DNA from: Geothrix sp.
GTDB lineage: Bacteria > Acidobacteriota > Holophagae > Holophagales > Holophagaceae
Assembly: GCF_020622065.1 (NCBI RefSeq)
Contig: NZ_JAHRYQ010000002.1
Location: forward strand, 803,905-867,904
Reading direction: 5' to 3'
Length of the DNA stretch: 64,000 bases
Shown here: piece after piece, positions 3,257 to 25,098 of the stretch
How the letters are laid out: the number at the start of each line of letters is the position of its first letter
Numbering within the stretch: position 1 is the stretch's first letter
Program-made: the position numbers and the translations under genes
The notes under the pieces: generated by a model
Told to the model about the DNA's origin: nothing
Databases searched by the model: none
What the model saw: only the letters and a program-made list of their open reading frames with translations

Positions 3257-3703
3257 TCAGGCGCCGAGATGGGTAATGACTTCTGCCAGGCAGGCCGCCC
3301 ACACCTCGTCCGGAGTCTCTTCCAGGAAGAACTCCACGGCGCGGCCCGCCGGCCGGGCCTCGGGATGCTGGGACCAGGCCTCGAACAGGGCGTCCAGGGG
3401 GGCGGCATCCAGGGGGTTGTGGCGGAACTTGTGGGATTTCCGGGCCCGGTCCGGCTCGGGCCCCCGGAGACAGACGCCTTCGCGTCGCGTGGCCACGAAG
3501 GTGAAGGCCTGGACCCACTTCCCGTCCATGAGCTGGTTGAAGTGCAGGAAGGCCCCGTGGTGGCTGCGGGAGTAGTCGAACACCCGGTGCTTGCCGCGCC
3601 ACTTGCCCACCCAGTGGGTGAGGAGGACCGCCAGGCGGGCCCGCTCTGAAGGGTGCTTCAGACAGCTCTGGGCGTAGGGCAGGAATTCATCGAGCAGGTC
3701 CAC
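3257..3703 (-). CDS. Hypothetical protein, 148 aa
   Basis: The family is not recognised. The soluble 148-residue product is rich in aromatic and charged residues, with segments such as VGKWRGKHRVFDYSRSHHGAF and WVQAFTFVATRREG. It has no signal peptide, membrane segment or metal-binding motif. It starts at GTG 3703 with a GGAGAG sequence upstream. It lies just upstream of the pheA leader on the same strand, and a GCCCG/CGGGC hairpin (about 3228-3242) falls in the gap. It is divergent from the histidine kinase gene, with about 70 bases between the starts. Confidence 0.6.
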   Translation of the reverse strand: MDLLDEFLPYAQSCLKHPSERARLAVLLTHWVGKWRGKHRVFDYSRSHHGAFLHFNQLMDGKWVQAFTFVATRREGVCLRGPEPDRARKSHKFRHNPLDAAPLDALFEAWSQHPEARPAGRAVEFFLEETPDEVWAACLAEVITHLGA

Positions 3704-3775
3704 GGCAACTCTCCAACAGTATCCACCCTACCGCATGGAAGATCCCGAGGGTGCAACCGGGCCCAGGTGGCTACC

Positions 3776-6415
3776 ATGGGGCCGGTTTCCATCCCTCCCA
3801 TGACGGCGCCCCCACTCCCATCCACCCCTCCGCTCACCTCGCCCCGGGGTCCGTCCCTGCTTGCTCTGGCCGTCCTGCTGGTGAGCCTGGGCGCGACGCT
3901 GCTGTCCTGGAGCGTCGCCCGCCGCAATCAGGAACAGCGGGACCTGGCCCGGCTCAACCGGTTCGTGGGCCGCACCGAACAGAGCCTGAAGAACCGGCTG
4001 GGCCGCTACGAGGACATCGTTCGGGGGGCCCAGGGCATGTTCGCCGCGGACCGGGGTGAGCCCGGCGTGGAGGAATGGCGGGCCTTCGTGGGCTCGCTGG
4101 CCCTCCAGGAGCGGCACCCGGGCCTGTCGAGCCTCGCCTTCATCCGCCGCGTTCCGGCCGCCGACCTGGATGGCTTTCTGCGGGACCGGCCGCAGCTGAG
4201 GGACCGCTACCATCGACCCATCTCGGATCCCCTGCCCCTTCGACACCCGGGCCAGGATGCGGACCACCTCATCATCGAGCTCTGCGAATCGGGCGCCCGG
4301 GGGGCGGCCGCCCTGGGACTCGATGTCGGCGTCAGCCCCACCCAGCGCCTCGCAGCGGAACGCGCGGCCGAGACGGGCCAGCCCACGCTGTCCGGGCTGC
4401 TCTACTTCACCCTCAAGGAGGGCCGTCAGGATGCCGTGGCCCTGTTCATGCCCGTCTATTCGGGGCCCGGCCTGCCCGGCACGCCGGAGGAGCGCCACCG
4501 CCACCTCAAGGGCTGGGTTTCCGCGGGGATCCTCCTCCAGCCGCTCCTGGAAGACCTCCTCCGGGGCGAAGACGCCGGTGTGGCCCTCAGCCTCGTGGAC
4601 GCCTTCGCGCCCCAGGGCCCCCAGCAGCTGATGGCCAGTGAGGGCTGGCCCCAGGGCGGGACACCTGAAGCGATCCAGAAGCTGGAGGCCGGGGGCCGCG
4701 GCTGGCAGCTCCGCTACGCGGTCAAGCCGGGCTTCTACCGCACCGAGGGACGGAACCAGCCCTTGCACCTGCTGATCGGCGGGCTCGTCATCAGCCTCTC
4801 GCTGGCGGCCGTGGTCTGGTCCCTGGCCGGCACGCGGGTGCGCGCCCTCGCCCTGGCCCACGACATGAATGCGACGCTGTTCGAGGCCCTCCAGCGGAAT
4901 CGCAGCCACCTGGAATCCACGCCCCTGGCCGTGATCGAGACCGACGGCGCCTTCCGGATCCGCGAGTGGAATCCAGCCGCGGAGCGGATCTTCGGCTACA
5001 CCCGGGAGGAGGCCCTCGGCAAGGACACCCGGGACCTCGTTCCCAAGGAAGGCCAGGCAGGGGTGGCCGCCCACCGGGAGGCCCTGCTCGGCGGCACGGA
5101 TGGCATCCGGGCCACCATGGAGAACCTCACCCGGACCGGCCAGCGGATCCTCTGCGATTGGTACAACACGGCGCTGCGCGACGAGCGGGGCCGCTTCCTC
5201 GGCGCCATCTTCATGGCCGACGATGTCACGGAGCGCCGGCGGGCCGAGAGCGCCCTGCGCCAGGCCCAGAAGCTGGAGAGCCTGGGCGTCCTCGCCGGGG
5301 GCATCGCCCATGACTTCAACAACCTCCTCACGGCCATCCTGGGCAATACCGAAGTGGCCCTGGACCTCGCCAAGGGCAATCCCCGCCTCCTGCACGCCCT
5401 CCAGCGCGTCGAGGCCACCACCCAGCGCGGTGCCGACCTGGCCCGCCAGTTGCTGGCCTATGCGGGCAAGGCCCACTTCTCGGTCCAGCCCCTGGATCTG
5501 AACGGCATCATCGTCGAGATGGGCGACCTGCTGTCGGTCTCCATCTCCAAGAAGGTGGTCCTGCGCCGGGACCTCCAGCCTGGCCTCCCGCCCGTGGAAG
5601 CAGACAGCGCACAGTTCCAGCAAGTCGTGATGAACCTGGTGATCAACGCCTCCGAGGCCATCGGCGATCGGCCCGGGAAGATCATCCTCCGCACGCGGGC
5701 GGCCGAATACACCCAGGCCCAGCTCTCCGCCGCCTTCCCGGGCCAGGTGCTGGAGCCCGGCCTCTATGTCCGCATGGAGGTGGAAGACGACGGCAGCGGG
5801 ATGGACGCGGAGACCATCGGCCGCATCTTCGACCCCTTCTTCACCACCAAGTTCACGGGCCGGGGCCTGGGCCTCTCCGCCATGCTCGGCATCGTGCGGG
5901 GCCACCGGGCGGGCATCCGGGTGGAGAGCACGCCGGGCGAGGGTACGACCTTCATCCTGCTCTTCCCCGCCGGCGAGGCCACCGTCACCATCCCGCCCCC
6001 CGAGGCCCAGCCCCGGCCCGCGGTGTCGGGGACCGTGCTGGTGGTGGATGACGAGGCCATCCTGCGTGACCTCGCGCGGACCGCCCTGGAGAACGCGGGC
6101 TTCCAGGTGCTGGAAGCCCGGGACGGCCTGGAGGCCGTGGAGGTGATCCAGGCGGGCCGGACCTCCGTGGATCTGGTGCTGCTCGACATGACCATGCCCC
6201 GCATGGGCGGCGCGGAGGCCTTCCGGAAGATCCGGGAACTGGCTCCTGGCATGCGGGTCCTCCTCACCAGCGGATACACCCAGAAAGAGTCCCTGGAGTC
6301 CCTGGAGGACTTCCCCCCGGACGGCTTCCTCCAGAAACCCTTCCAGGTGAGGGAGCTGGTGGCGAAAATTCGGGACATTCTCACCGATTCACCCCGGAGA
6401 CGAACGCCTGAATGA
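3776..6415 (+). CDS. CHASE-PAS hybrid sensor histidine kinase
   Basis: Membrane sensor kinase of about 879 residues. TM1 (about residues 20-45) and TM2 (IGGLVISLSLAAVVWSLAG, about 335-355) flank a periplasmic region of about 270 residues that resembles a CHASE ligand-binding domain. A PAS domain follows (VIETDGAFRIREWNPAAERIFGYT), then HisKA with the H-box GIAHDFNNLLT (His512) and an HATPase domain (GRGLGLSAMLGIV). The C-terminal receiver contains VVDDEA, LLDMTMPRMGG (Asp804) and a conserved Lys in LQKPF. The start at 3776 is chosen for its AGGTGG site. ATG 3800 is an alternative start, and an in-frame extension to 3653 is unlikely. The ligand is unknown. Confidence 0.88.
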   Translation: MGPVSIPPMTAPPLPSTPPLTSPRGPSLLALAVLLVSLGATLLSWSVARRNQEQRDLARLNRFVGRTEQSLKNRLGRYEDIVRGAQGMFAADRGEPGVEEWRAFVGSLALQERHPGLSSLAFIRRVPAADLDGFLRDRPQLRDRYHRPISDPLPLRHPGQDADHLIIELCESGARGAAALGLDVGVSPTQRLAAERAAETGQPTLSGLLYFTLKEGRQDAVALFMPVYSGPGLPGTPEERHRHLKGWVSAGILLQPLLEDLLRGEDAGVALSLVDAFAPQGPQQLMASEGWPQGGTPEAIQKLEAGGRGWQLRYAVKPGFYRTEGRNQPLHLLIGGLVISLSLAAVVWSLAGTRVRALALAHDMNATLFEALQRNRSHLESTPLAVIETDGAFRIREWNPAAERIFGYTREEALGKDTRDLVPKEGQAGVAAHREALLGGTDGIRATMENLTRTGQRILCDWYNTALRDERGRFLGAIFMADDVTERRRAESALRQAQKLESLGVLAGGIAHDFNNLLTAILGNTEVALDLAKGNPRLLHALQRVEATTQRGADLARQLLAYAGKAHFSVQPLDLNGIIVEMGDLLSVSISKKVVLRRDLQPGLPPVEADSAQFQQVVMNLVINASEAIGDRPGKIILRTRAAEYTQAQLSAAFPGQVLEPGLYVRMEVEDDGSGMDAETIGRIFDPFFTTKFTGRGLGLSAMLGIVRGHRAGIRVESTPGEGTTFILLFPAGEATVTIPPPEAQPRPAVSGTVLVVDDEAILRDLARTALENAGFQVLEARDGLEAVEVIQAGRTSVDLVLLDMTMPRMGGAEAFRKIRELAPGMRVLLTSGYTQKESLESLEDFPPDGFLQKPFQVRELVAKIRDILTDSPRRRTPE

Positions 6416-6466
6416 TTAATCCGGAATGCCTTTTCCATTAGCTAAGTCCTTGCGATTCCAGCGTCC

Positions 6467-6482
6467 TGTGGCATGGGTCACA
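6467..6482 (+). promoter_or_regulatory. Crp-like site upstream of the hemerythrin-Nfn gene
   Basis: TGTGG-N6-TCACA, one mismatch from TGTGA-N6-TCACA. It is centred about 83 bases before the ATG. A possible -10 element (TAGACA, 6503-6508) lies about 28 bases past the centre, which would suit class II activation. Confidence 0.5.
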
Positions 6483-6557
6483 AGTGTTCCCAATTAGGTT
6501 TTTAGACACAGAATTCCCCCTCCCGTCATCGCATGCTGAACGGATCTGGAGGCCTCC

Positions 6558-9341
6558 ATGTCTGAGTCCGAAGCGGCCACGAACCTGATCAGCGCTGGGA
6601 ATCTTCCCACGCCGAACTGGCACGCCACCCATGAAGAGGCCCAGGGCCAGCTGACGCGCATGTCCGAAGCCCTGGGCGCGGGCGACTGGAAGGGCGTGGA
6701 CCGGGGCGCCCGGTGGATCTTCGAGGTGCTGCGCGTCCACAACGAGGCCGAGGAGCGGGAACTGTTCCCCCTCCTGGAGGAGATCGGCGCCGAGTCCCTG
6801 CACCAGCGCCTGCACGAGGATCACCGCCAGATGTGGGATCTGAACCTGCAGCTGCTGGCCGAGATCAACGACGGCCAAGTGCGCGCCCCCCGCTCCCTCA
6901 CCCTGCTGGGCCAGCGACTGGTGGACCTGATCCGCGAGCACATCGAGACGGAAGAGCACCTGATGCTCCCCTTGCTCAAGGGCAAGACCCTCTACTGGTC
7001 CGACGACGAGACCCAGGACGGCTACCTGATCCTCGAGAAGAAGCTCATCGCCCCCGAGACCTGGTCCTTCATCGTGCAGGCCCCCCAGGTGGCCCGGGGC
7101 CGCAAGCCCGGCCAGTTCTTCATGGTGGCCCCCTTCCCCGAGAGCGAGCGCATCCCCCTCACCCTCGCCGGCGGCGATGCCCGCCGAGGCTACATCCACT
7201 TCATCATGCAGGAGGTGGGCGCCACGACCCAGGCCATGGGCAAGCTCAGCGCGGGCGACCGCCTCTACGCCGTGGCCGGCCCCATGGGCACCCCCACGGA
7301 GCTGGTGGAGGAAGGCACCATCGTCCTGATGGCCGGCGGCTACGGGTCTGCGGCCATCCTGCCCGCGGCCGAGGAGCTGCACGCCAAGGGCCGCCGCGTG
7401 ATCACCATCCTGGGCGGCCGCAGCCGGGAGCGCGTGCTGCTGGCCGATGAGCTGGGCAAGGCCTCCGCCGAACTGATCATCACCACCGATGACGGCACCC
7501 TGGGCCGCCAGGGCCTGGTGACGGACGCCCTCAAGGACATCATCGCCCGGGAGAAGGTGGCCCAGGTGGTGGCGGTGGGCCCCCTGCCCATGATGCGGGC
7601 CGTGTCCGACCTGACGAAGCCCCACGGCATCTTCACCCTCGTGAGCCTCAACGCCCTCATGGTCGATGGCACGGGCATGTGCGGCGGCTGCCGCGTCAGC
7701 GTGGGCGGGCAGACCAAGTTCGCCTGCTTCGACGGTCCCGACTTCGACGGCCACCAGGTGGACTTCAACATGCTCCGCATGCGCCAGGACTGGTACAAGC
7801 AGGAGGAGAAGGACATCTGCGATCCCTCCGAATGCAAGATCGGCCGCGTGGCCGCCACCGGCCCCGTGGACTACTCGCAGTACCTCAACGAGCCTGTGAC
7901 GGAGCTGGACTGGCAGAACCTGGACCTGGGCGCCATCAAGCCCAGCCAGAAGATGAAGATCCCCCGCCAGGAGATGGCCTGCCAGCCGCCCGAGCTGCGC
8001 GTGTGCAACTTCGACGAGGTGAGCCTGGGCCTGTCGCCCGAACAGGCCAAGCTGGAGGCCGCCCGCTGCATCATGTGCAAGCACCCCGCCTGCATCGAAG
8101 GCTGCCCGGTGAGCATCAACATCCCGGCCTTCCTGCAGCAGATCGTCAATGACGATCCCCAGGCCGCGGCCCGCGTCATCAAGGAAAGCTCCTCGTTGGG
8201 CTCCGTCTGCGGTCGTGTCTGCCCGCAGGAGAAGCAGTGCGAGATCAAGTGCGTGGTGGGCATCAAGGGCCTGCCCGTGTCCATCGGCCGCCTGGAGCGC
8301 TTCGCCTCGGATTCCATGCTGGGCTCCCAGGAGCTGCCCCCGGTCGAGGCGGCCACGGGCAAGAAGGTCGCTGTCATCGGCGCGGGCCCCGCGGGCCTCA
8401 CGGTCGCGGGGGAGCTCATCAAGAAGGGCCACCAGGTCACCGTCTACGACGCCCTCCACAAGCCCGGCGGCGTGATGCTCTACGGCATCCCCGAGTTCCG
8501 CCTGCCCAACAAGATCGTGGATCAGGAAGTGGACACCCTTCGCCGCCTGGGCGTGAAGTTCGTCATGAACACCCTGGTGGGCCGCAGCATGACGCTGGAG
8601 GATCTCCGCCAGGAGAACGACGCCATCTTCATGGGCACCGGCGCCGGCCTGCCCAAGATGATGGGGATCCCCGGCGAGGAGTTCAAAGGCGTCTACACCG
8701 CCAACGAGTTCCTCACCCGCATCAACCTCATGCGTGCCGACCTCTTCCCCGAATACTCCACGCCCGTGACCATCGGCAAGAATGTGATCATCGTCGGCGC
8801 TGGCAACACCGCCATGGACGCCTCCCGCGCCGCCCGCCGCATGGGCGCCGAGAAGGTCACGGTGGTCTACCGCCGCACCATCAATGAATCCACGGCCCGC
8901 AAGGAAGAGCTCGAGCACGCGATGGAGGAGGGGGTCGAGTTCAAGTTCCTCACCACCCCCGTGCAGCTCCACGGCAACGAGAAGGGCTGGATGACCCACG
9001 CCGAATGCGCCGTGATGGAGCTGGGCGAGCCCGGCCCCGACGGCCGCCGCAGCCCCAAGATGACCGACGAGCGCATCATGATCCCCTGCGAGACCCTGGT
9101 GGTCGCGCTGGGCTTCGATGTGAACCCCCTCCTGGCCATGACGGAAAAGGGATTGCGGACCCTCAAGGGGGGGGTTGTTGTCGTCGACAATGAAACTGGC
9201 GAGACCTCCCTCCCGGGCGTCTTCGCAGGCGGCGATGTCATCACCGGTGGCGCCACGGTGATCCTGGCCATGGGTCAGGGCCGCCGGGCCGCCGCCGCCA
9301 TCCACAAACGCCTTTTGGGGGAAGCTCAGGCTGTGGTCTGA
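6558..9341 (+). CDS. Hemerythrin-NfnA-NfnB fusion (NADH-dependent ferredoxin:NADP+ oxidoreductase)
   Basis: A 927-residue single polypeptide. Residues 1-145 form a hemerythrin-like four-helix domain with the diiron ligand pattern (HATHEE, VHNEAEERELFP, HEDH, REHIETEEHLMLP). Residues about 150-390 are a ferredoxin-reductase-like NfnA part with FAD/NAD folds and a [2Fe-2S] motif (GMCGGCR, about 374-378). Residues about 400-927 are a GltD-like NfnB part with CIMCKHPACIEGCP and CGRVCPQEKQCE cysteine sets and two dinucleotide folds (GAGPAGL, VGAGNTAMD). NfnAB couples NADH and ferredoxin to NADP+ by electron bifurcation and is normally two subunits. The hemerythrin could sense or bind O2 or NO. GGAGG precedes the ATG, and PFOR follows. 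Confidence 0.88.
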   Translation: MSESEAATNLISAGNLPTPNWHATHEEAQGQLTRMSEALGAGDWKGVDRGARWIFEVLRVHNEAEERELFPLLEEIGAESLHQRLHEDHRQMWDLNLQLLAEINDGQVRAPRSLTLLGQRLVDLIREHIETEEHLMLPLLKGKTLYWSDDETQDGYLILEKKLIAPETWSFIVQAPQVARGRKPGQFFMVAPFPESERIPLTLAGGDARRGYIHFIMQEVGATTQAMGKLSAGDRLYAVAGPMGTPTELVEEGTIVLMAGGYGSAAILPAAEELHAKGRRVITILGGRSRERVLLADELGKASAELIITTDDGTLGRQGLVTDALKDIIAREKVAQVVAVGPLPMMRAVSDLTKPHGIFTLVSLNALMVDGTGMCGGCRVSVGGQTKFACFDGPDFDGHQVDFNMLRMRQDWYKQEEKDICDPSECKIGRVAATGPVDYSQYLNEPVTELDWQNLDLGAIKPSQKMKIPRQEMACQPPELRVCNFDEVSLGLSPEQAKLEAARCIMCKHPACIEGCPVSINIPAFLQQIVNDDPQAAARVIKESSSLGSVCGRVCPQEKQCEIKCVVGIKGLPVSIGRLERFASDSMLGSQELPPVEAATGKKVAVIGAGPAGLTVAGELIKKGHQVTVYDALHKPGGVMLYGIPEFRLPNKIVDQEVDTLRRLGVKFVMNTLVGRSMTLEDLRQENDAIFMGTGAGLPKMMGIPGEEFKGVYTANEFLTRINLMRADLFPEYSTPVTIGKNVIIVGAGNTAMDASRAARRMGAEKVTVVYRRTINESTARKEELEHAMEEGVEFKFLTTPVQLHGNEKGWMTHAECAVMELGEPGPDGRRSPKMTDERIMIPCETLVVALGFDVNPLLAMTEKGLRTLKGGVVVVDNETGETSLPGVFAGGDVITGGATVILAMGQGRRAAAAIHKRLLGEAQAVV

Positions 9342-9458: not shown

Positions 9459-13019
<3,561 letters not shown>

Positions 13020-13029
13020 GGGAGACGAC

Positions 13030-14022
13030 ATGAACCTCTCGACCACCTACCTCGGCCTCAAGCTGGCCCATCCGTTGATGGCGGGCGCCTCGCCCCTGGT
13101 CGATGACATGGGCATGGTCAAGCGCCTCGAAGATGCCGGCGCCTCCGCCATCGTCATGCACTCGCTCTTCGAGGAGCAGATCACCCGCGAAGAGCAGGGC
13201 ATGATCATGGACATGGAGCTGAGCTCCAATTCCAGCGCGGAAGCCATCTCCTTCTTCCCCCAGCCTGATGAGTTCCGCCTCGGCCCTGAGAAGTACCTCG
13301 AGCAGCTTCGTCGCATCAAGCAGGCCGTGGCCGTGCCCGTCATCGCCTCCCTGAACGGCACCACTCCGGCCGGCTGGCTGCACTATGGCCAGCTCATGGA
13401 ACAGGCCGGCGCGGACGCCCTCGAACTGAATGTCTACTACCTGGCCACGGATCCCACGGAAACCGCCGCCGCCGTGGAAAAGCGCACCCTCGACGCCGTG
13501 CGCGCCGTGAAGGCGCAGGTGAAGATCCCCGTCGCCGTGAAGCTCTCGCCCTTCTTCTCCTCCCTGGCGCACTTCGCCGGGGAGCTGGAGACGGCTGGCG
13601 CCGATGGCCTGGTGCTCTTCAACCGCTTCTTCCAGCCCGACATCAATGTGGAGGAGCTGACCGCCGAGCCCAGCCTGCAGCTGTCCGGGCCCGAGGACCT
13701 GCTGCTCCGCCTGCGCTGGCTGGCCGTGCTGCATCACCACATGAAGGGCAGCCTCGCCGTCTCCGGCGGCGTCCACGACGGCATCGGAGCCCTCAAGGCC
13801 GTGATGGCTGGCGCCGACGCCGTGCAGATGGTATCCGCCCTCCTGATCCACGGCCCCGAGCGCCTGGCCCAGTCCCGCGCCACCCTGGCCGAGTGGCTGG
13901 AGGAGCATGAGTACGAGTCCCTGGCCCAGGCCCGCGGCAGCATGAGCCTTCAGAAGTGCCCGAACGCCCAGGCCTTCACCCGCGCGAACTACATGCGCAT
14001 CCTGAACGGCTGGAGGGCCTGA
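13030..14022 (+). CDS. Dihydroorotate dehydrogenase-like FMN protein
   Basis: A 330-residue TIM-barrel protein of the dihydroorotate dehydrogenase/PreA superfamily. Visible features are YLGLKLAHPLMAGASPL at the N-terminus, VPVIASLNGTT, ADALELNVYYLA, VKLSPFF and VSGGVHDG with ADAVQMVSALL, which match FMN-phosphate loops. The start lies ten bases after the PFOR stop behind GGGAG, so the two are probably co-transcribed. Homologues often sit next to PFOR genes, but their substrate is not established, and this is not clearly the pyrimidine-synthesis enzyme. Confidence 0.82.
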   Translation: MNLSTTYLGLKLAHPLMAGASPLVDDMGMVKRLEDAGASAIVMHSLFEEQITREEQGMIMDMELSSNSSAEAISFFPQPDEFRLGPEKYLEQLRRIKQAVAVPVIASLNGTTPAGWLHYGQLMEQAGADALELNVYYLATDPTETAAAVEKRTLDAVRAVKAQVKIPVAVKLSPFFSSLAHFAGELETAGADGLVLFNRFFQPDINVEELTAEPSLQLSGPEDLLLRLRWLAVLHHHMKGSLAVSGGVHDGIGALKAVMAGADAVQMVSALLIHGPERLAQSRATLAEWLEEHEYESLAQARGSMSLQKCPNAQAFTRANYMRILNGWRA

Positions 14023-14067: not shown

Positions 14068-14161
14068 GCATTGTGAAAGAAAGTACACTCTTTGCTGTGA
14101 TTGACCTAAAGATCGTCTATCATTCAGAATCGACAACCGCCCATAACCTGCGCAGGTGACC

Positions 14162-14716
14162 ATGCTTCCTCTGTCCCAGTCCTCCGGTTACGCCGTTCTG
14201 GCCATGAGCTGCCTTGAGGATCCCGGCGGCAAGCCGACGCTGGTGGTGGATGTGGCGGCCCGCACGGGCTTCCCCCGCCCCTACCTCTCGAAGATGATCC
14301 ACAAGCTCGCCAAGGTGGGCCTGGTGATGGCCAAGCGCGGCAACAAGGGCGGCGTGGTGCTGGCCCTGCCGGCCAAGGAGATCACCCTCGATCTCATTGC
14401 CGAGGCCGTCGACGGTTCCGAATGGCGGAACAAGTGCCTGCTGGGCTTCTCGGAGTGCACCGACGAGCGCGCCTGCCCCGCCCACACCTTCTGGAAGTCC
14501 GAGCGCGATCACATCCACCGCTGCCTGAAAGACATCTCCCTCGAGGAGATCCGCACCTTCGAGCAGCAGAGCCGCACCTGGCGCCTGGCGGATGCCCTGC
14601 CCGAGAAGAAGCTCAAGCCCAAGCCCAAGAAGGCCACCAAGCCCGCCGGCGCCAAGCCTGCCGCCGCGGCCCGCAAGCCGGCCGCGCCGAAGAAGGCCGC
14701 CCCCAAGAAGGCCTAG
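14162..14716 (+). CDS. Rrf2-family regulator with a basic Lys/Ala/Pro-rich tail
   Basis: Rrf2 proteins are winged-helix repressors, often with a [2Fe-2S] cluster sensing iron-sulfur status, NO or redox state. The N-terminal domain (MLPLSQSSGYAVLAMSCL, then RPYLSKMIHKLAKVGLV and RGNKGGVVLA) closely matches its convergent neighbour. Three cysteines in NKCLLGFSECTDERACPAH (C-x6-C-x5-C) suit a cluster. The last 35 residues are Lys/Ala/Pro repeats like a histone H1 or AlgP tail, which is unusual for the family. ATG 14162 is preferred over GTG 14156 because the paralogue begins with the same MLPLSQ. Confidence 0.88.
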   Translation: MLPLSQSSGYAVLAMSCLEDPGGKPTLVVDVAARTGFPRPYLSKMIHKLAKVGLVMAKRGNKGGVVLALPAKEITLDLIAEAVDGSEWRNKCLLGFSECTDERACPAHTFWKSERDHIHRCLKDISLEEIRTFEQQSRTWRLADALPEKKLKPKPKKATKPAGAKPAAAARKPAAPKKAAPKKA

Positions 14717-14804: not shown

Positions 14805-15251
14805 TCAGTTGAGCCCGTGGTCCGCCCGGAATCGCTCGACGCCCGGGTCCTGGTGGCGGGCCATGTCCGCCAGCGTGACGCCCCTCAGGCGGGCCAGGAT
14901 CATGTCCAGCGTCTCTCCCCAGAATTCATGGAGGACGCAGGGCGTCTCGTCCGAGCAGCCGGCCAGCCCCACCAGGCAGCGGTTCCGCCAGGTCACGCCA
15001 TCGATGGCCTCTGACAGATCCTCCAGGGTGATTTCCGTCGCCGGCTTGGCCAGCACCACCCCCCCGTGGTGCCCCCGCCGCGCGGTCACCAGTCCCTTCT
15101 TCGCCAGCTTGTGAACCAGCTTGGACAGATAGGAGCGCGGGATCCCCGTGTAATCGGCCACCGACTCCACCAGGACCGGCTGCCCACCCGGCTCCTGAAG
15201 ACAGCGCATGGCGCGCAGCGCGTAACCAGTGGTTTGGGATAAGGGCAACAC
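14805..15251 (-). CDS. Rrf2-family transcriptional regulator
   Basis: A 148-residue Rrf2 protein. The winged helix is MLPLSQTTGYALRAMRCLQEPGGQPVLVESVADYTGIPRSYLSKLVHKLAKKGLV in outline, with the wing RRGHHGGVVLAKP. The likely cluster ligands lie in NRCLVGLAGCSDETPC (C-x6-C-x5-C). The start is GTG at 15251. It is a close paralogue of the regulator at 14162 but lacks the basic tail. A perfect-looking Crp-type site lies 80 bases upstream, inside a 62-bp element that recurs upstream of a decaheme cytochrome gene. A role in redox or cytochrome control is inferred. Confidence 0.88.
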   Translation of the reverse strand: MLPLSQTTGYALRAMRCLQEPGGQPVLVESVADYTGIPRSYLSKLVHKLAKKGLVTARRGHHGGVVLAKPATEITLEDLSEAIDGVTWRNRCLVGLAGCSDETPCVLHEFWGETLDMILARLRGVTLADMARHQDPGVERFRADHGLN

Positions 15252-18236: not shown

Positions 18237-20843
18237 TTACTTGTGAACAGCGGTGGGGCCGAACTGCGAACCCGCGCCGTGGCAGGCGCCACAGGCTTCA
18301 CTGGTCATGTTCAGGGCACTGCGGTTCACCTTGATCTGGCCACCGTTCGTGACCATGTGGGCCTTGGCGGCGGCACTGTCATGGCAGGTGACGCAGGCGG
18401 CGGTGAACGGGGTGATCATCTTGTCCGTGGCGCTGACGGTGTCGATCGAGGTCTGGGCGTCCGCGGTGGTCAGGATGGCGCCGTTGTCCGCCAGTTCGCG
18501 GCTGGCCAGCAGCTTGCCGGAGGTGGGCATGTTGTAGCCGGTGGAGGTGTGGCAGCTCTGGCAGTTGCTCAGGATGCCGGGGAAGCCGACCCGGGCGCCG
18601 TCCACGATGGTGATGTTGCCACTGCGGTTGCGGGTGATCGCGATGGGGCTGGTGCGATCGGCGCCGGCGTGGATGCCGTGGATCATGTCCTTGAAGTTGT
18701 TGGTGGTCTGGGGGAACTTCAGGGCCACATTCGGGTTGGTCGGAACGGGGTTGGTGGTGAAGTCGATGCCCGTCCAGTTCTTCAGGCTGACCAGGTCCTT
18801 GGCGGAGAACTTGTTCGAGGGCACATAGTAGGCGTTGATCTGGGCATCGGAGGTGCCGCGGCCGCTGGTGGTGAGGCCGGGGACATGGCAGGTGACGCAG
18901 ACCTGGACTTCATAGACGCGGTTGCCGCCGTGGCCTTCGAACCACTCGTGGCACTTGGCGCACTTGGCCGAATCGATGGCGGTGCGACGGACGGCATCAC
19001 CCGTGACGGCCTTGACCACGGAGATGGCGTGGCGGGCAGCGGCGGGACTGACCTGGGTGAAGTAGCCCTGCAGCGAAACCGAGCGGAGCTTGGCGGTGGC
19101 GGGGAAGGCGTTCAGCACGGTCGCGGTGTAGTAGCCGCTGGCATCGACTGAGGCGGAAATCGTTCCGCTAGCCGCAGCTTTGCTATTGTCCCGAAGGGTG
19201 ATCAGGGAAACCGACTGAGGCTGGCCGTTCTTGAGACCGAGGTTGTTGTAGTCGGCGGGATCGGTGATGCCGTCCTGATCCTGGGCGTAGGCGAACAGGA
19301 AGCTGGGAGCGCCGGTGAAACCAGTAAGGATGCTGCCACTGTTGGTGTTCAAAGGGCCGGCAGCGGCGGGCAGGAAGGTGGTGTCCTTGCCGTCGGCCTT
19401 GATCTTGAAGACGACCGTGGCGGTGGTGCCGGAGACGGCGGCGGACTTGATCTCGTAGGTGAAGTTCACCAGGCCGGCCGCAACGGTCGGGTTGTGGGGC
19501 GTCACATTGGCGGTCATGTGGTAGGTCTTGATCGCGGCCGAGTCATGGCAGATGGTGCAGGCCAGATCGTTGAGCTGCGGGACATTGGTGCCCGGCATGT
19601 GGTTCGCGCCCGTGGCGAAATCCACGGCGTCGTGGCAGGTGCCGCAGGCCAGCCGGCTGGGCTTCAGGTTCCAGTTCTGGGCCTGGGCCACGCCGTCATG
19701 GCACTTGGAGCACATGCGCTGACCACCGTCGAGCATCGAGTAGCCGAGGGTCTCGAACTTGACATTGGCGTAGTTGTAGCCGGTCTTGGTCAGTTCGGAG
19801 CCCATGTGGATCCGGTGGGCCATGGCCGTCAGATCGCCCACGGCGCCGCCGTTGATCTTGCGCTGCCCGGCGACGGCATCGTAGCCCGTGGCCGTGGTGG
19901 TGGCTTCGGCGTAGCCGAACTTGCGCTGGTCGGTGTGGCACACGGCGCAGTAGCGGACTTCCACGCGGCCGCCGCCATGGAAGGCGAGCTTGTCATGGCA
20001 CTCATTGCAGTTGTTGATGGAGACGACATCGCGGATGTCCGTCGTGGCGGTGACGGGGGCGCCCGTGGCCGGCACGAAGTCGTAGATCACATTGATGGGG
20101 TTCGTCATGTTGACGGAAGGCGTGACAGTCACGCCGTTGGCCGTGTTGCTGCCGGTCCCGCGGGCGGCGCCCGAGAACTGGATGCTGAGGCGGTGCACGA
20201 GGTTGGGCGCGTAGGTCACATCACCCAGGTCGGCCTTGGCGGCAGGGGCGGTGTAGGTGGCCGCATCCAGGGCCGCCTGGACCTTGGTGATGTCGCGGTA
20301 GAAGGTGTACTTGTAGGTGCCGTCGCCGTTGTCCACCAGGGTGCCGGTGTTGTCGGTGGTGGGCCGGGTGGGGGCCGCGGCGGCAGTGGTGGTCGGGGTG
20401 CTGGTCACGATGTAGCTGACCCACTTGCTGGGAGCCTTGGTCGCGGCATCCTCGGGCACCAGCTTCGCCATGGCGAAGGCCAGGTTGGGATAGCTGGCGA
20501 CAAGAGCCGTGGAGCTCTTGGAGGTGAAGCCACCGAGGCCCCGGATGCCGATGCCGGCGGCATCGGTCACCTGGAAGTTGACCACCGGGGCAGCGCCCAT
20601 GGTGACGCTGGTGACCTTGACCGTGGCCTTGAGGTTGGCCCACTGATCCGTGGTCAGGCGATCCGCATCGACGATGGTGATGCCGTTGGTGCCATTGGTG
20701 CCATTGGTGCCATTGGTCCCGTTGGTGCCATTGGTCCCGTTCAGGCCGGCGTTGCCGTCTTTGCCATTGCAGCCGATCAGCACCAGCGCGATGGCGGCGG
20801 TGGCGATCAGGCCGCACAGCTGTTTGAGGGGTTTGTGTTGCAT
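18237..20843 (-). CDS. OmcA/MtrC-family decaheme c-type cytochrome lipoprotein (paralogue 1)
   Basis: An 868-residue outer-surface cytochrome with exactly ten CxxCH motifs (CNECH, CAVCH, CSKCH, CGTCH, CTICH, then CAKCH, CVTCH, CQSCH, CVTCH, CGACH). The N-terminus is a lipoprotein signal with lipobox LIGC (Cys25). Nine collagen-like Gly-X-Y triplets follow (residues 27-53, mostly GTN). Five hemes fall on each side of a beta-rich central part, as in the OmcA/MtrC architecture. Such proteins pass electrons to extracellular acceptors such as Fe(III). GGGAG precedes the ATG. The paralogues at 22011 and 25186 share the same plan. Confidence 0.95.
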   Translation of the reverse strand: MQHKPLKQLCGLIATAAIALVLIGCNGKDGNAGLNGTNGTNGTNGTNGTNGTNGITIVDADRLTTDQWANLKATVKVTSVTMGAAPVVNFQVTDAAGIGIRGLGGFTSKSSTALVASYPNLAFAMAKLVPEDAATKAPSKWVSYIVTSTPTTTAAAAPTRPTTDNTGTLVDNGDGTYKYTFYRDITKVQAALDAATYTAPAAKADLGDVTYAPNLVHRLSIQFSGAARGTGSNTANGVTVTPSVNMTNPINVIYDFVPATGAPVTATTDIRDVVSINNCNECHDKLAFHGGGRVEVRYCAVCHTDQRKFGYAEATTTATGYDAVAGQRKINGGAVGDLTAMAHRIHMGSELTKTGYNYANVKFETLGYSMLDGGQRMCSKCHDGVAQAQNWNLKPSRLACGTCHDAVDFATGANHMPGTNVPQLNDLACTICHDSAAIKTYHMTANVTPHNPTVAAGLVNFTYEIKSAAVSGTTATVVFKIKADGKDTTFLPAAAGPLNTNSGSILTGFTGAPSFLFAYAQDQDGITDPADYNNLGLKNGQPQSVSLITLRDNSKAAASGTISASVDASGYYTATVLNAFPATAKLRSVSLQGYFTQVSPAAARHAISVVKAVTGDAVRRTAIDSAKCAKCHEWFEGHGGNRVYEVQVCVTCHVPGLTTSGRGTSDAQINAYYVPSNKFSAKDLVSLKNWTGIDFTTNPVPTNPNVALKFPQTTNNFKDMIHGIHAGADRTSPIAITRNRSGNITIVDGARVGFPGILSNCQSCHTSTGYNMPTSGKLLASRELADNGAILTTADAQTSIDTVSATDKMITPFTAACVTCHDSAAAKAHMVTNGGQIKVNRSALNMTSEACGACHGAGSQFGPTAVHK
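20685..20765 (-). repeat. Collagen-like Gly-X-Y repeat region in decaheme paralogue 1
   Basis: Nine Gly-X-Y codon triplets, the last six identical GTN units, sit right after the lipidated cysteine. The DNA shows a 9-bp periodic pattern. Such regions can change length by slippage. Confidence 0.85.
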
Positions 20844-21277
20844 GTCTTTTCTCCCTTGGTGGAGGTGGAACTAAGAGTCATGAGACGCGTGGAGGGGTCC
20901 TGGGACTGAGCAACCGGATCACGCACCCCCTGTGGAACTGGGTGGGGCGGGCGCGGGATTCCCAAGGAAGCCAGCGCGAAGGAATGCATCTGTGGGTCCG
21001 GTGCGCCGGCAAGGCGCTGATGTTCAATCCACAGAAAGCTGATGCCTATGTCAAAAATCACCCAAAGGATAGCCATCCCTTTGATCACCTCAAAGGTGGA
21101 TATGATCCTCATGCATATGCCTTCATGCTTAAAAAGATGCCAATACAAATTGGGTGTCTAGACCTTTTGTTATCTGCAAGATCACGCGGATGATGCCTTT
21201 CAGCCTCTCCCGCTTTATCCGACGGAGGAGGCTTGAAAAAAGAATCGGCGACCAGAGGTTCCCACTTGCGACAAAGT

Positions 21278-21293
21278 TGTGACCTTTGCCACT
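21278..21293 (-). promoter_or_regulatory. Crp-like site upstream of decaheme paralogue 1
   Basis: TGTGA-N6-CCACT preceded by GACAAAGT. The same GACAAAGTTGTGACC string precedes the site at 30946, which supports a shared function. Confidence 0.45.
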
Positions 21294-21314
21294 CGAGCCC
21301 GGCCCCATGCGAAA

Positions 21315-21342
21315 GGACCCGGAGCGGGTCGGCTCCGGGTCC
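21315..21342 (-). terminator. Terminator of the second HhH gene
   Basis: An 11-bp perfect stem (GGACCCGGAGC with GCTCCGGGTCC) and a 6-base loop, followed by TTTCG on the minus strand. Confidence 0.75.
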
Positions 21343-21429
21343 TGGGTGCAGCGGCTTCTTCGGGGAGGTGGCGAGGTCGTTGGCGCGATCGTGGCGGCTC
21401 GGCGGGCCGCCGGGCTCCGCGGGTTTCCC

Positions 21430-21819
21430 TCAGCGCTTGGCGGCCGGGTTCCGTACGGCCACCCGGTCCCGGATGGCCAGGTAGACCCCCTCAGGCAGGG
21501 CCCCGTTGGTCACCAGGTGCGCCTTCGTCAGATAGGGGCGCCCGGCGATGATCTTGTCCGCATAGGCGTCTGTGATCCCCGGGACGGTCTTCAGCTGCTC
21601 CTTGGAGGCCGTATTGAGGTCGATGCGCTTGGCATCCGCCTCGGCTTTGGCCTTCTCCTTCGCCTTGATGCGCGCGGCCCGGGCCTTGGCCTTCGCCGCG
21701 GTGCTGCTGGATTTCTTCGGCGTCAGGCGCTGGTCCTGGGCAGGATCCTGCGCGGGGGCCACGGCAGCAGCGGTCATCACCAGGGTCAGCAGGGTGGTCT
21801 TGAGGGCTCGGTTCATCAT
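21430..21819 (-). CDS. Exported helix-hairpin-helix (ComEA-like) protein, paralogue 2
   Basis: A 129-residue protein with a signal peptide (TTLLTLVMTAAAVAPAQ) and a long Lys/Ala-rich, probably helical, basic linker. A C-terminal HhH segment follows (RIDLNTASKEQLKTVPGITDAYADKIIAGRPYLTKAHLVTNGALPEGVY). The IDLNTAS...GI...AxxIIAGRPY pattern is typical of ComEA-like domains. It resembles the protein at 17747 in its last 60 residues. GGAG sits six bases before the first of two adjacent ATGs. It lies between two decaheme cytochrome genes on the same strand, so a link to the cell-surface electron-transfer system is suspected but not shown. Confidence 0.82.
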   Translation of the reverse strand: MMNRALKTTLLTLVMTAAAVAPAQDPAQDQRLTPKKSSSTAAKAKARAARIKAKEKAKAEADAKRIDLNTASKEQLKTVPGITDAYADKIIAGRPYLTKAHLVTNGALPEGVYLAIRDRVAVRNPAAKR

Positions 21820-21920
21820 GGCTCACTCCAGTCGGGGCTTGATTGTCAGGCGGTGGGCTGACAATCGTCAACGGCCGGCTCCCGCGCCGACGGTGGGCAG
21901 GCCGCCGTGGGATCCACGCG

Positions 21921-21953
21921 AAACGGCCCGGACGCAAAGCGTCCGGGCCGTTT
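21921..21953 (-). terminator. Terminator after decaheme paralogue 2
   Basis: A 14-bp perfect stem (21921-21934 with 21940-21953) and a 5-base loop lie 58 bases past the stop. Only a short T run follows. Confidence 0.75.
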
Positions 21954-22010
21954 CGTCAGGGCGGGGTGGTGCGCCCCGGAGCCGGCAAGCCGGACTCCGG
22001 GAAACAGCGA

Positions 22011-24650
22011 CTAGAACTTCATGTGCACAGCCTTGATGTCCGCGGTCTTGCCGGTGCCGTGGCAGATCATGCACTGCTCGGTCCGGGTGGACAGCAGGCT
22101 GCGGTTCTCGTTGATGGTGCCGCCATTGCCCTTCATGTGGGCGATCGCCGCCGTGTTGTCATGGCAGGCGAAGCAGGCCGCGCTGATGGGTGAGATGACC
22201 ATGTTGGTCCCCGCGCCATCCGCATAGGCACCGGTGGCCGCGGTGAAGCTGAAGCCCGCACCGTAGATGGTGTTGGGCTGCACCCAGGGGGCGTAGTAGA
22301 TGCCGAAGGGTTCATTCCCGGTGGTGACCACGGCCAGGGTGGCGGGGGTGGCCGTGGTGCCGCTCATGGCCGTGGAGGCCAGGAGGTTCGGCAGGGCGGA
22401 CGCGGAGCCACTGAGGGAGAAGTCGTAGGTGCCGGAGATGTGGCAGGCTTCGCAGTTGTTCAGGATGGCCGGGTAGGTCGGCTTCCAGAGCTGCGTGACA
22501 TCCGCGTGCCAGGAGAACTTGTTCTCGCGGACGGCGGAGGCGTGCAGGGCGTGGACGGAATCCTTGGCGTTCACGCTCCAGCCGCTGTTGGCGCGGTTGG
22601 CGGTGTGGCACCAGGAGCAGGTGGGCGCGTCGTTGCGCTGACCAGCGTGGTAGACCTTCTCGGTGAAGACGCCGAGGGCCGCGTGGCAGTCATTGCACTT
22701 GGCGTTGCTCACGATGGTGCGGCGGGCCGTCTGGGCGGCAAAGCCGGTGGGCAGCGTGCCGCTAACAACCTTGAAGGTGTTGGGCGCGGGAACGCTCACG
22801 CCCCCCTGCCGCTTGCCGTCGGCGTTGTAGGCGTAGCCAGCCACATTGGTCTGGGTGAGGGGCTGGGTGTTGGGAATGCCGTAGCTGTAGCCGATGCCGC
22901 CGGTGATCATCGTGGCGGTGGTGGGGATCTTCACGCTCTTGATGGTCAGCGTGTAGTAGCCGCTGGCATCGGGGCCGGTCATGTCGCTGGTGGTGACGGT
23001 CTTGTTCCAGACATTGCGGATGTAGGCGCTGGCCGAGGCATTGAAGTCCGCGGGCTTGGCGATGCCATCCTGGGGTACGGCGAAGACCACATAGGCGCTG
23101 GGGCCGCCCACGAAGTTCGGCAGCAGTTCCACGGTGGCGTCCGCCGCCGCAGGCTGCGCGTTGAAAGTCGCGGCCTTGCCATCCAGGAGGAAGCGGAACT
23201 TGAGGACGGGCTGCTGGCTGGCGTTGATGGTCACGCTGCTCAGATCCCAGGTGGGCGTCACGGCGCCGGCGGGCAGGTTGCCGGTGTAGGCCGCCACATA
23301 GGAGGCATTGGTGTTGGTGCCCGTGCCGCCGTTCCAGACATTGTTCGGGTCAGGCCGCACCGCGGGGACATGGTTCAGCTTGACGCCGGCCGCGCCGTGG
23401 CAGGAGCTGCAGTTGGCGTCAGAAGTGGCCGCGCCGCCCGCGTGGTTGGCGCCGGTGGCCCAGACGATGTTGTCGTGGCAGGCGCCGCAGGCCAGGCGGC
23501 TGGGGACCAGGTTCCAGTTGTCGCCCTGGGGCGTGGCGGTGGAGGCCGTATGGCACTTGGTGCAGTTCCGCAGGTCCTGCGGATAGGTCACCTCGTTGTA
23601 GGCCAGGAACTGGTTGTAGCCCTGGTAGTACAGGAGTTCCCCGGTGTGGATCTTATGGATCATGTTCGGGAAATCCGCCAACGCCATGCCCTGGAGCCGC
23701 TGGGTGCTGCCGTACAGGCCGGCGGCCACCAGGGTGTTGCCCGTGGCAGGCAGGGACTCGCCGCTGCCGTACTTCAGCTGATCGGTGTGGCATACCGCGC
23801 AGAGCTTCGCGTCCTGGATGGGCGGGAACTGGGCAGCATGCAGCGACAGCTTGGTGTGGCAGGTGTTGCAGGAAGCGGTGTCGACGATCAGGCGCTCGGC
23901 ATCCGTGGCCGCGACGGCCTTGCCCGTGGAGGGGATGAGGTCGTAGGTGAGGTTGGCCGTATCCTTCGCCGTGGTGGTGGTACCGATCTGGTAACCGCCC
24001 ATGGTGACGATCACGCGATGCGTCAACGCCGGTTCGTAGGTCAGATCGCCGAGATCCGCCTTCAAGTGCGTGGCGTCATAGGTGGCGCCATCCACATAGC
24101 CCTTGGCCTTGGTGAGATCCAGGGCGGCGGTGTAGGTGTATGTGCCGTCCAGGTTGTCCTTCAGGGTTCCGGAATTCTCGGTGTGGGGCCAGCCGGGCAC
24201 GGCCGCCTTGCCCGCAGCGGGGGTGGTCACGACCATGTAATTGACCCAGCGGCTGGGGCTCTTCGAGGTGGCGTCGCCCGGGACCAGCTTGGCGACGGCG
24301 AAGCCGAAGTTCGAGTAGGCGCCCGTCGAGCTCTTCTGGGCCAAGCCGATCACCGGGATGCCCTGGGCATCGGTGATGGAGAAGTTCACGACCGGCGCGC
24401 CGCCCATGGTGACGCTGGTGATGGAGCCGCGGAGGGAGAGCTTCGCCCATTCGTCTTGGCTGAGCTGGGCGGCATTCACGGTGATGGTGGCGTTGGTGCC
24501 GTTGGTGCCGTTGGTGCCATTCGTTCCATTCGTGCCGTTTGTGCCGTTGGCACCGTTCTGGCCGGCCTTGCCGTTGCAGCCAATCAGGACGAGCGCGACG
24601 GCGGCCGTGGCGATGAGCCCACAGAGCTGTTTGAGAGGTCGGTGTTCCAT
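22011..24650 (-). CDS. OmcA/MtrC-family decaheme c-type cytochrome lipoprotein (paralogue 2)
   Basis: An 879-residue protein with ten CxxCH motifs (CNTCH, CAVCH, CTKCH, CGACH, CSSCH, then CNDCH, CSWCH, CEACH, CFACH, CMICH). It has the same lipobox (LIGC, Cys25) and nine Gly-X-Y triplets as paralogue 1. It is closer to paralogue 3 than to paralogue 1, sharing for example GATYD/LKADLGDLTYEPALTHR-like text, TMITGGIGY, CMICHGTGKTADIKAVHM and LLASTA. The predicted location is the outer cell surface, attached by lipid, with electron transfer to extracellular acceptors. AGGA precedes the ATG. A Crp-like site and an rrf2 remnant lie upstream. Confidence 0.95.
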   Translation of the reverse strand: MEHRPLKQLCGLIATAAVALVLIGCNGKAGQNGANGTNGTNGTNGTNGTNGTNATITVNAAQLSQDEWAKLSLRGSITSVTMGGAPVVNFSITDAQGIPVIGLAQKSSTGAYSNFGFAVAKLVPGDATSKSPSRWVNYMVVTTPAAGKAAVPGWPHTENSGTLKDNLDGTYTYTAALDLTKAKGYVDGATYDATHLKADLGDLTYEPALTHRVIVTMGGYQIGTTTTAKDTANLTYDLIPSTGKAVAATDAERLIVDTASCNTCHTKLSLHAAQFPPIQDAKLCAVCHTDQLKYGSGESLPATGNTLVAAGLYGSTQRLQGMALADFPNMIHKIHTGELLYYQGYNQFLAYNEVTYPQDLRNCTKCHTASTATPQGDNWNLVPSRLACGACHDNIVWATGANHAGGAATSDANCSSCHGAAGVKLNHVPAVRPDPNNVWNGGTGTNTNASYVAAYTGNLPAGAVTPTWDLSSVTINASQQPVLKFRFLLDGKAATFNAQPAAADATVELLPNFVGGPSAYVVFAVPQDGIAKPADFNASASAYIRNVWNKTVTTSDMTGPDASGYYTLTIKSVKIPTTATMITGGIGYSYGIPNTQPLTQTNVAGYAYNADGKRQGGVSVPAPNTFKVVSGTLPTGFAAQTARRTIVSNAKCNDCHAALGVFTEKVYHAGQRNDAPTCSWCHTANRANSGWSVNAKDSVHALHASAVRENKFSWHADVTQLWKPTYPAILNNCEACHISGTYDFSLSGSASALPNLLASTAMSGTTATPATLAVVTTGNEPFGIYYAPWVQPNTIYGAGFSFTAATGAYADGAGTNMVISPISAACFACHDNTAAIAHMKGNGGTINENRSLLSTRTEQCMICHGTGKTADIKAVHMKF
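24492..24572 (-). repeat. Collagen-like Gly-X-Y repeat region in decaheme paralogue 2
   Basis: Nine Gly-X-Y triplets, the last six GTN. Same position and number as in the two paralogues, although the codons differ. Confidence 0.85.
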
Positions 24651-24714
24651 GTTTCATTCCTTTCGGGAAATCGAACTGCGGTTGAAGAGCCAGATGGGGG
24701 AGTTGGGATGCGCC

Positions 24715-24867
24715 TTAGCCGTAGGCCCGCCGCCGCCGCACCCTCTGGTTGGCGGTGCCGCAGAAGCCCTGGGCCGATCCGAAGGTGGTCACCCAGCCCA
24801 GGCTCAACTCGGCCCCAGCCTGCCGAAGGCAGCGCATGGGGGCGGGACCAGGCATGGAGAGAAGCAC
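24715..24867 (-). pseudogene. Decayed rrf2 copy upstream of decaheme paralogue 2
   Basis: A GTG at 24867 lies at nearly the same distance from the Crp-like site (78 bases) as the GTG of the intact rrf2 gene at 15251 does from its own site (80 bases). The open frame reads MLLSMPGPAPMRCLRQAG, matching the MLPLS...MRCLQEPG start of Rrf2 with gaps. Similarity then fades, and the frame stops after 50 codons, before any complete wing or cysteine motif. Together with the near-identical upstream 62 bp, this suggests a duplicated and decayed rrf2 gene. A remnant is inferred; it is not proven. Confidence 0.5.
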
Positions 24868-24898
24868 GCGGCATCCTCAGGAGGAGCGTTCCTCGGAT

Positions 24899-24961: not shown

Positions 24962-25098
24962 GCCCCATGACAAAACTGAGACGGCCCATCAACCGGAGGC
25001 CCCGACTAATTCCAAAGGGCAGATGGACCACCTGCACCTCCCCCGTTGCAACGACCCCAGCCTGGCTGGCTACCCCCCCGAAGGGCGCACGCACAAAA

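What the first reader, a model, noticed from the sequence alone, without database searches (positions are those of the whole stretch)
6558..9341. Hemerythrin fused to both subunits of NfnAB
One frame encodes a complete-looking hemerythrin domain (ligand histidines and glutamates present), then NfnA, then NfnB. NfnAB is usually two proteins without hemerythrin. A diiron domain on a flavin bifurcating enzyme could shut it off or protect it when O2 or NO is present. A Crp-like site lies upstream and PFOR is next.
Basis: partly seen in the sequence, partly recalled or inferred. Interest (0 to 1): 0.66.

Follow-up and report, generated by a model that had tools for sequence, protein, structure and literature searches.

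The report
Diiron-tipped fused NfnAB transhydrogenase
Soil and sediment bacteria of the Geothrix family make a ferredoxin/NADH/NADPH-coupling enzyme as one chain with an iron-binding hemerythrin-like domain on its front end, a conserved arrangement that may let the enzyme cope with oxygen, peroxide or nitric oxide, though this is untested.

Summary
Window 6558-9341(+) is one 927-aa frame: hemerythrin/HHE domain, NfnA, NfnB. It is no sequencing artefact: a match running from the Hr domain into NfnA occurs in 57 of 77 genomes of the family (Holophagaceae, mostly Geothrix), seven genera, including several cultured Geothrix species. All Nfn cofactor motifs are present. The iron-ligand set H25, H61, E65, H89, H128, E132 is invariant, and it is the YtfE type (4 His, 2 Glu), not the 5-His O2-carrier type: a Trp stands where O2-carrier paralogues in the same genome have the fifth His. 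The Crp-like site is real: it stands at about -91 in 39 of 39 Geothrix-genus upstream regions and recurs before a 2-oxoacid:ferredoxin oxidoreductase gene (15 of 15). PFOR follows in 33 of 33 genus loci long enough to show it. A sister genus has NfnAB without Hr; one genome has a foreign two-gene nfnAB with a free hr gene right behind it. NfnAB carrying another diiron domain (ferritin, PRK12775) is already annotated by NCBI, and fused NfnAB is known. So: a new variant of a known kind. Protection or reductive detoxification in cis is the likeliest role; no step of it has been shown.

The parts
6466..6483 (+). Crp/Fnr-type operator CTGTG-N7-TCACAA; TGTG starts 91 nt before the ATG
   Evidence: Window 6467-6482 TGTGN7TCACA; present in 39 of 39 genus upstream regions at -91 to -94 (window plus 38 loci)
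6558..9341 (+). Hr-NfnA-NfnB single-chain protein, 927 aa (end includes stop)
6609..6977 (+). Hemerythrin/HHE domain, residues 18-140; ligands H25, H61, E65, H89, H128, E132
   Evidence: PF01814 44.7 bits; four-helix bundle in both models; ligand conservation
6978..7022 (+). Short conserved linker, residues 141-155
   Evidence: alignments
7023..7832 (+). NfnA domain, residues 156-425: FAD motif ERIPLT 197-202; Asp/Cys3 [2Fe-2S] motif 370-390
7986..9308 (+). NfnB domain, residues 477-917: two [4Fe-4S] motifs 503-518 and 552-581; R648 aligned with the bifurcating-FAD Arg of T. maritima NfnB
9459..13019 (+). Pyruvate:ferredoxin oxidoreductase, single chain
   Evidence: TIGR02176 1808 bits; directly downstream in 33 of 33 genus loci whose contig extends far enough
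13030..14022 (+). Dihydroorotate-dehydrogenase-like protein (PRK07565)
   Evidence: 426 bits, cut-off 303; beside PFOR and Hr-Nfn in another order in a second genus
14156..14716 (+). Rrf2-family regulator with Cx6Cx5C
   Evidence: PF02082 80.7 bits; sequence printed

Best explanation
It is the only NfnAB-type transhydrogenase found in this Geothrix genome, made as one chain. It couples reduced ferredoxin (from PFOR and 2-oxoacid:ferredoxin oxidoreductases) plus NADH to NADPH formation. Its N-terminal YtfE-type diiron domain is held close to the NfnA (a-FAD / [2Fe-2S]) end by a short conserved linker and acts there as a built-in defence module: it captures O2, peroxide or NO/nitrite and most likely reduces them with electrons from the enzyme's own flavin or from NAD(P)H, so that the Fe-S clusters of Nfn and of nearby ferredoxin enzymes survive oxic or nitrosative pulses. 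Shown here: architecture, ligand and cofactor-motif conservation, single NfnAB, conserved operator and PFOR neighbourhood. Inferred: iron content, electron transfer into the diiron site, the substrate, and the benefit.
For: Invariant six-ligand set in every fused relative. The ligand columns fall on YtfE H129/E133/H160/H204/E208 in the profile alignment (E=0.017, marginal; YtfE ligands read in PMC9052748). Complete Nfn motifs, including the Asp/Cys3 cluster and R648. Hr under purifying selection, dN/dS 0.15-0.30 in the 6 within-genus pairs. A free hr gene starts 51 nt after the nfnB stop in G069, whose nfnAB is not orthologous to the family's, so the Hr-Nfn link seems to have outlived replacement of the Nfn part. 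A second, unrelated diiron domain (rubrerythrin/ferritin) is fused to the other end of NfnAB in other Acidobacteriota (L073, L076). Precedents: HydR, a hydrogenase-rubrerythrin chimera shown to reduce H2O2 with H2 (PMC11926857, passages); predicted Rub-Bfu complexes (PMC9304861, passages); HerA/HerB hemerythrins protecting Por and Oor in C. jejuni (PMC4257069, passages). Operator shared with a 2-oxoacid:ferredoxin oxidoreductase gene.
Against: No rubredoxin, di-Cys (ScdA_N) or other visible electron relay between flavin and diiron site. The distance from a-FAD to the diiron site was not measured: no coordinates were available, and the full model is only pLDDT 76, pTM 0.67. The sister genus g11 keeps NfnAB without Hr (3 genomes), so Hr is dispensable for Nfn function. 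Hr evolves faster than the Nfn part, and one duplicate (L047) has Hr dN/dS 0.69. HerA protects Por/Oor without any known electron transfer. The shared operator points to metabolic rather than stress regulation.
Confidence: 0.42

Rival explanations
1. Sensor/gate: the diiron domain binds O2 or NO (or changes redox state) and, through the short linker, slows or stops bifurcation so that ferredoxin and NADPH are not wasted.
For: Short, conserved linker with invariant residues before NfnA; hemerythrin domains often sit in signalling proteins (PMC4919030, passages); [quoted passage not shown]
Against: The 5-His O2-binding ligand set is absent: W93 in 48 of 49 loci, one gap. No allosteric surface could be tested.
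Confidence: 0.22
2. Iron-sulphur maintenance: a YtfE/RIC-like iron donor that repairs Nfn and neighbouring PFOR clusters after damage.
For: YtfE is the nearest solved sequence relative; Nfn carries three clusters by motif; PFOR is adjacent.
Against: No ScdA_N domain; a separate ScdA_N+Hr (YtfE-like) protein exists in the same genome (L033); in C. jejuni repair rates did not depend on HerA.
Confidence: 0.16
3. Structural or stabilising appendage: a metal-bound helical bundle that aids folding, oligomerisation or partner docking, without redox chemistry.
For: Hr diverges faster than the Nfn part (45-86% identity to the window among the 15 other fused rows of A1); sister genus lacks it.
Against: The ligand residues are invariant while the surrounding surface varies.
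Confidence: 0.15
4. Degenerate or neutral fusion.
For: The L047-type duplicate shows a relaxed Hr.
Against: dN/dS 0.15-0.30 in the genus, ligands invariant, 7 genera.
Confidence: 0.05

Closest known systems
Nfn (NfnAB), fused 'Pattern B' (PRK12778; Liang et al. 2019, PMC6405883, abstract and passages seen)
   Same: NfnA then NfnB in one chain; all quoted cofactor motifs
   Different: Extra N-terminal hemerythrin domain; none of the four patterns A-D described in the passages seen has one; PRK12778 score 947, below its cut-off 1103
PRK12775, NfnA-NfnB-ferritin 'trifunctional' protein (NCBIfam)
   Same: A diiron-type domain fused to NfnAB
   Different: Ferritin/rubrerythrin domain at the C-terminus; window protein scores 767 against cut-off 1895
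YtfE / RIC di-iron protein
   Same: Same 4-His/2-Glu ligand pattern; nearest solved sequence
   Different: No ScdA_N di-Cys domain; fused to an NAD(P)H/ferredoxin enzyme
HydR hydrogenase-rubrerythrin chimera (PMC11926857, passages seen)
   Same: Low-potential redox enzyme with a built-in diiron module
   Different: Rubrerythrin with rubredoxins, H2 as donor, activity shown
Campylobacter jejuni HerA/HerB (PMC4257069, passages seen)
   Same: Hemerythrins that protect 2-oxoacid:acceptor oxidoreductases
   Different: Separate proteins with hemerythrin spectra; not fused
Rub-Bfu (predicted, PMC9304861, passages seen)
   Same: Bifurcating core paired with a diiron protein
   Different: Different bifurcating family (BfuBC), adjacent gene, prediction only

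Membership tests
[quoted passage not shown]
   residues 197-202 and 370-390; motifs read in PMC6405883; the review's final V is F here
[quoted passage not shown]
   503-518; 552-581 with an 11-residue spacer instead of 13, as in P. furiosus NfnI in the alignment
[quoted passage not shown]
   R648 aligned with T. maritima R187, invariant in 15 rows
[quoted passage not shown]
   5jca_L Z 37.2, rmsd 3.7, 432 aligned; NfnA 4yry_C Z 27.3, rmsd 2.6, 252 aligned
[quoted passage not shown]
   needs enzyme assay
Hemerythrin/HHE domain (PF01814) | Profile match over curated cut-off | tested here: met
   44.7 bits, cut-off 25.3
Hemerythrin/HHE domain (PF01814) | His/Glu ligand set | tested here: met
Hemerythrin/HHE domain (PF01814) | Hemerythrin-type bundle specifically | tested here: inconclusive
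   3cax Z 14.3 (rmsd 2.6, 132 aligned), 2p0n 13.1 (3.0, 128), 3waq 11.8 (3.8, 120), 6q09 11.7 (2.8, 119), mixed with unrelated bundles; no Foldseek E below 0.001
O2-carrier hemerythrin (5 His) | HxxxH in helix C (canonical motif recalled) | tested here: not met
   HxxxW, W93 in 48 of 49 loci; own-genome paralogues L036, L038, L039, L040 do show HxxxH there (sequences)
YtfE/RIC | ScdA_N domain with Cys pair | tested here: not met
   no PF04405 in the protein; present in own-genome L033
PRK12775 NfnAB-ferritin | C-terminal ferritin domain, score over cut-off | tested here: not met

The most novel reading that the evidence does not exclude
Hr-NfnAB is a self-sufficient detoxifying oxidoreductase: the diiron site is an extra electron sink of a flavin-based bifurcating enzyme, so that NADPH/NADH or ferredoxin electrons reduce O2, H2O2 or NO/nitrite in cis. 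That would be an Nfn with a fourth substrate, and would offer an answer to the open question of what reduces YtfE-type diiron sites in cells.
Probability: 0.22. Interest if true: 0.75.

Novelty: new variant of a known kind. Interest (0 to 1): 0.5.

Why it matters
Nfn is a model enzyme for electron bifurcation, and the O2 and NO sensitivity of Fe-S enzymes limits where ferredoxin-based metabolism works. A bacterial lineage that carries a conserved diiron module on its only Nfn offers a natural, single-protein test of how such enzymes are defended or gated. If the diiron site is reduced by the enzyme, it would also bear on the unknown physiological reductant of YtfE-type proteins.

Tried and rejected
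Sequencing-error or frameshift fusion: rejected. Origin of the Hr from one of the other Hr paralogues of the genome: of the 8 of 12 fetched, none scores above 19.3 bits against the fused-Hr profile, so no recent source was found. Hr fusions elsewhere in the phylum: in 396 phylum genomes no listed match outside the family starts before residue 145 (the tail of that list is not shown), and of 32 flanks outside the family (L061-L092) only L076 has an Hr gene nearby, divergent, beside an NfnAB-ferritin fusion. A divergent Hr could be missed, and other phyla were not surveyed by profile: the genome-contig scan used two peptide patterns and found 49 loci, all of the fused protein's own clade. Plasmids: 246 records match, one place covers 80% or more of the query, and the 12 listed matches start at residue 156 or later. 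Own-genome Hr paralogues as a phylogeny: no tree built, similarity too low. Structural distance from FAD to the diiron site: no coordinates supplied. Hr-domain fold search gave no exclusive family match. The dN/dS values are NG86 on a few pairs (9 pairs, 3 regions), not a site model. In the NfnAB tree the split of all Hr-bearing rows from the rest has support 0.707 only, so a single gain of Hr is likely, not proven. I first noted a sigma-70 promoter before PFOR with a 16-17 nt spacer; the spacer is 11 nt, so I withdrew it. Exact operator hits L150 and L152 lie inside or near unrelated genes and are probably chance; L153 is unassigned.

Print: searches for hemerythrin with NfnAB (0 papers), Geothrix with hemerythrin (1 paper listed, not opened), hemerythrin + electron bifurcation + fusion, NfnAB + rubrerythrin, hemerythrin domain architectures, Nfn + diiron terms: no description of Hr-NfnAB seen in those listings or in the passages read; only open-licence papers are held.

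Full report
WHAT IS THERE. The frame at 6558-9341 (+) encodes 927 aa without interruption. Pfam places Hemerythrin (PF01814) at 18-140, the DHODB-type Fe-S domain at 366-402, Fer4_20 at 482-587 and Pyr_redox_2 at 602-908. NCBIfam gives NfnA-like PRK06222 at 156-425 and NfnB-like TIGR01316 at 477-917, both over their cut-offs; the fused-NfnAB model PRK12778 matches 157-919 at 947 bits but below its cut-off of 1103, and the NfnAB-ferritin model PRK12775 matches its NfnAB part only (767, cut-off 1895). Solved Nfn subunits are the top sequence matches. AlphaFold2 on a 32-row alignment gives pLDDT 76, pTM 0.67; the model aligns with NfnI large chain 5jca_L (Z 37.2, rmsd 3.7, 432 aligned) and NfnA 4yry_C (Z 27.3, rmsd 2.6, 252 aligned). 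The Hr part alone is a confident four-helix bundle (pLDDT 85.6). Its structural neighbours include hemerythrins (3cax, 2p0n, 3waq, 6q09) but also unrelated bundles at similar Z, so the fold comparison alone does not prove the family.

THE DIIRON SITE. In a 48-row alignment (the window, the same gene again as own-genome locus L001, 44 other fused sequences, the free Hr gene of L056 and the Hr fragment L096) H61, E65, H89, H128 and E132 are in 48 of 48 and H25 in 47 of 48, one gap. In the 49 named loci of the genome scan the counts are 48 or 49 of 49, the remainder being gaps. A profile of the fused Hr domains finds YtfE as the nearest solved sequence (E=0.017, marginal), and its alignment puts H61/E65, H89 and H128/E132 on YtfE H129/E133, H160 and H204/E208, which are diiron ligands by PMC9052748 (passages). 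YtfE's remaining ligand, H84, lies outside that alignment; H25 is my assignment. Four residues after H89 stands Trp (48 of 49), where own-genome O2-carrier-like paralogues (L036, L038, L039, L040) have the fifth His. So the ligand set is 4 His / 2 Glu, and a reversible O2 carrier is not the natural reading.

THE NFN PART LOOKS ACTIVE. All motifs quoted in the review of Liang et al. 2019 (PMC6405883, passages) are present: ERxPxT, the Asp/Cys3 [2Fe-2S] motif, both [4Fe-4S] motifs and the Arg at the bifurcating FAD (R648), and the cluster and FAD residues are invariant in the 15-row alignment. Own genome: this is the only NfnAB-like gene at E 1e-3; two other weak hits (29% and 42% over short parts) are not Nfn.

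DISTRIBUTION AND HISTORY. The window lies in a 3.35 Mb, 2-contig genome; named relatives are Geothrix, among them G. fermentans DSM 14018, G. oryzisoli, campi, limicola, rubra, fuzhouensis, paludis and terrae. Of 77 family genomes, 57 have a match that runs from Hr into NfnA (44 of 47 in the genus, 38 of them full length; 13 in six further genera). Of the other 20: three (genus g11) have NfnAB without Hr, two have separate nfnA and nfnB, two show only gene fragments that lack the Hr end, six show only distant NfnB-like matches or fragments, and seven nothing at this limit. One of the 57 (G064) has the chain split between two frames. In the class search (93 genomes) 16 genomes outside the family give at best an NfnB-like match. 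In 396 phylum genomes, listed matches outside the family start at residue 145 or later. A tree of the NfnAB part places g11 (no Hr) beside the Hr clade with support 0.707. In G069 the nfnAB is a two-gene type that falls outside the family clade, yet a free Hr gene with 40% identity to the fused Hr starts 51 nt after the nfnB stop codon (start codon 10628, stop ends 10576); its C-terminus (GYLML) resembles the fused linker (GYLILEK), suggesting it was once fused. Hr is under purifying selection within the genus (dN/dS 0.15-0.30 in 6 pairs, against 0.11-0.19 for NfnA and 0.07-0.18 for NfnB), but one duplicate pair in another genus is relaxed (0.69). Two fused copies in G070 also contradict the review's statement that fused nfn shows no duplication in sequenced genomes.

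NEIGHBOURHOOD AND REGULATION. PFOR follows directly in 33 of 33 genus loci that extend far enough (39 genus loci; 6 end inside the gene); in one locus of another genus (G052, seen twice as L041 and L141) the order is PFOR, DHOD-like, Hr-Nfn. The Crp-like site CTGTG-N7-TCACAA is in 39 of 39 genus upstream regions (window plus 38 loci; nine regions of other genera were dropped beforehand), at -91 in 36, -92 in two, -94 in one. TGTG-N7-TCACAA occurs five times in the genome, the reversed control none. One of the other sites precedes a VorB-type 2-oxoacid:ferredoxin oxidoreductase alpha gene (PRK07119, 414 bits, cut-off 399) and stands at -75 or -76 in 15 of 15 upstream regions (16 loci fetched, one cut short). 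Both sites share TTGTGAYC-N5-CACA in this genome. Up to one mismatch there are 19 rows (one palindrome listed twice) against 2 in the control; four of these besides the Hr-nfn site lie in this window: before an Rrf2 gene, before two OmcA/MtrC decaheme cytochromes, and before a POR_N/TPP 2-oxoacid oxidoreductase-like gene. This puts Hr-NfnAB among ferredoxin and metal-respiration genes, rather than in an evident stress regulon. A Crp/Fnr-type regulator gene lies at 43643-44380; whether it binds the sites is untested.

HOW IT MOST LIKELY WORKS. See Best explanation. Shown: architecture, conservation, motifs, context. Inferred: metal content, substrate, electron path. Convergent addition of two unrelated diiron domains to opposite ends of NfnAB (Hr here; rubrerythrin/ferritin in L073 and L076, which match PRK12775 full length at 1638 and 1629 bits, below its cut-off of 1895) and the proven HydR case (PMC11926857, passages) favour reductive chemistry; C. 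jejuni HerA/HerB (PMC4257069, passages) favour protection without it. Lack of any electron relay and dispensability in g11 argue for caution.

NOVELTY. Fused NfnAB and diiron-decorated NfnAB are both already catalogued; an N-terminal YtfE-type hemerythrin on NfnAB was not seen in the literature searched (searches listed in Tried and rejected). I rate it a new variant of a known kind.

Noticed in passing
window 15330, 21277, 24944, 30945 (+ strand): Further near-matches to the Hr-nfn operator stand 79 nt before an Rrf2 gene, 434 and 294 nt before two OmcA/MtrC decaheme cytochromes, and 154 nt before a POR_N/TPP gene: a possible Crp-family regulon of ferredoxin and extracellular electron transfer genes.
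   Followed up: partly
window 43643-44380 (-): Crp/Fnr-family regulator (cNMP_binding + HTH_Crp_2), a candidate for the operator.
   Followed up: partly
window 14156-14716 (+) and 14805-15251 (-): Two Rrf2 regulators side by side, both with Cx6Cx5C, next to PFOR; possible Fe-S sensing of O2 or NO.
   Followed up: no
window 18237-27864 (-): Three OmcA/MtrC-family decaheme cytochromes in a row (10 CxxCH each) with collagen-like N-terminal repeats.
   Followed up: no
L073:2279-5248(-), L076:2323-5295(-): NfnA-NfnB-ferritin fusions (PRK12775-like) in other Acidobacteriota; L076 has a divergently transcribed hemerythrin gene beside it (5572-6201 +).
   Followed up: partly
L056:8294-11128 (+): nfnA-nfnB-hr three-gene cluster with a foreign nfnAB and an Hr whose tail resembles the fused linker.
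   Followed up: partly
window 3653-6415 (+): CHASE-PAS-histidine kinase-receiver protein directly upstream of Hr-nfn, kept in many genus loci.
   Followed up: no
L044:13426-13938 (-): A separate O2-carrier-like hemerythrin gene about 1.1 kb from a fused Hr-NfnAB.
   Followed up: no
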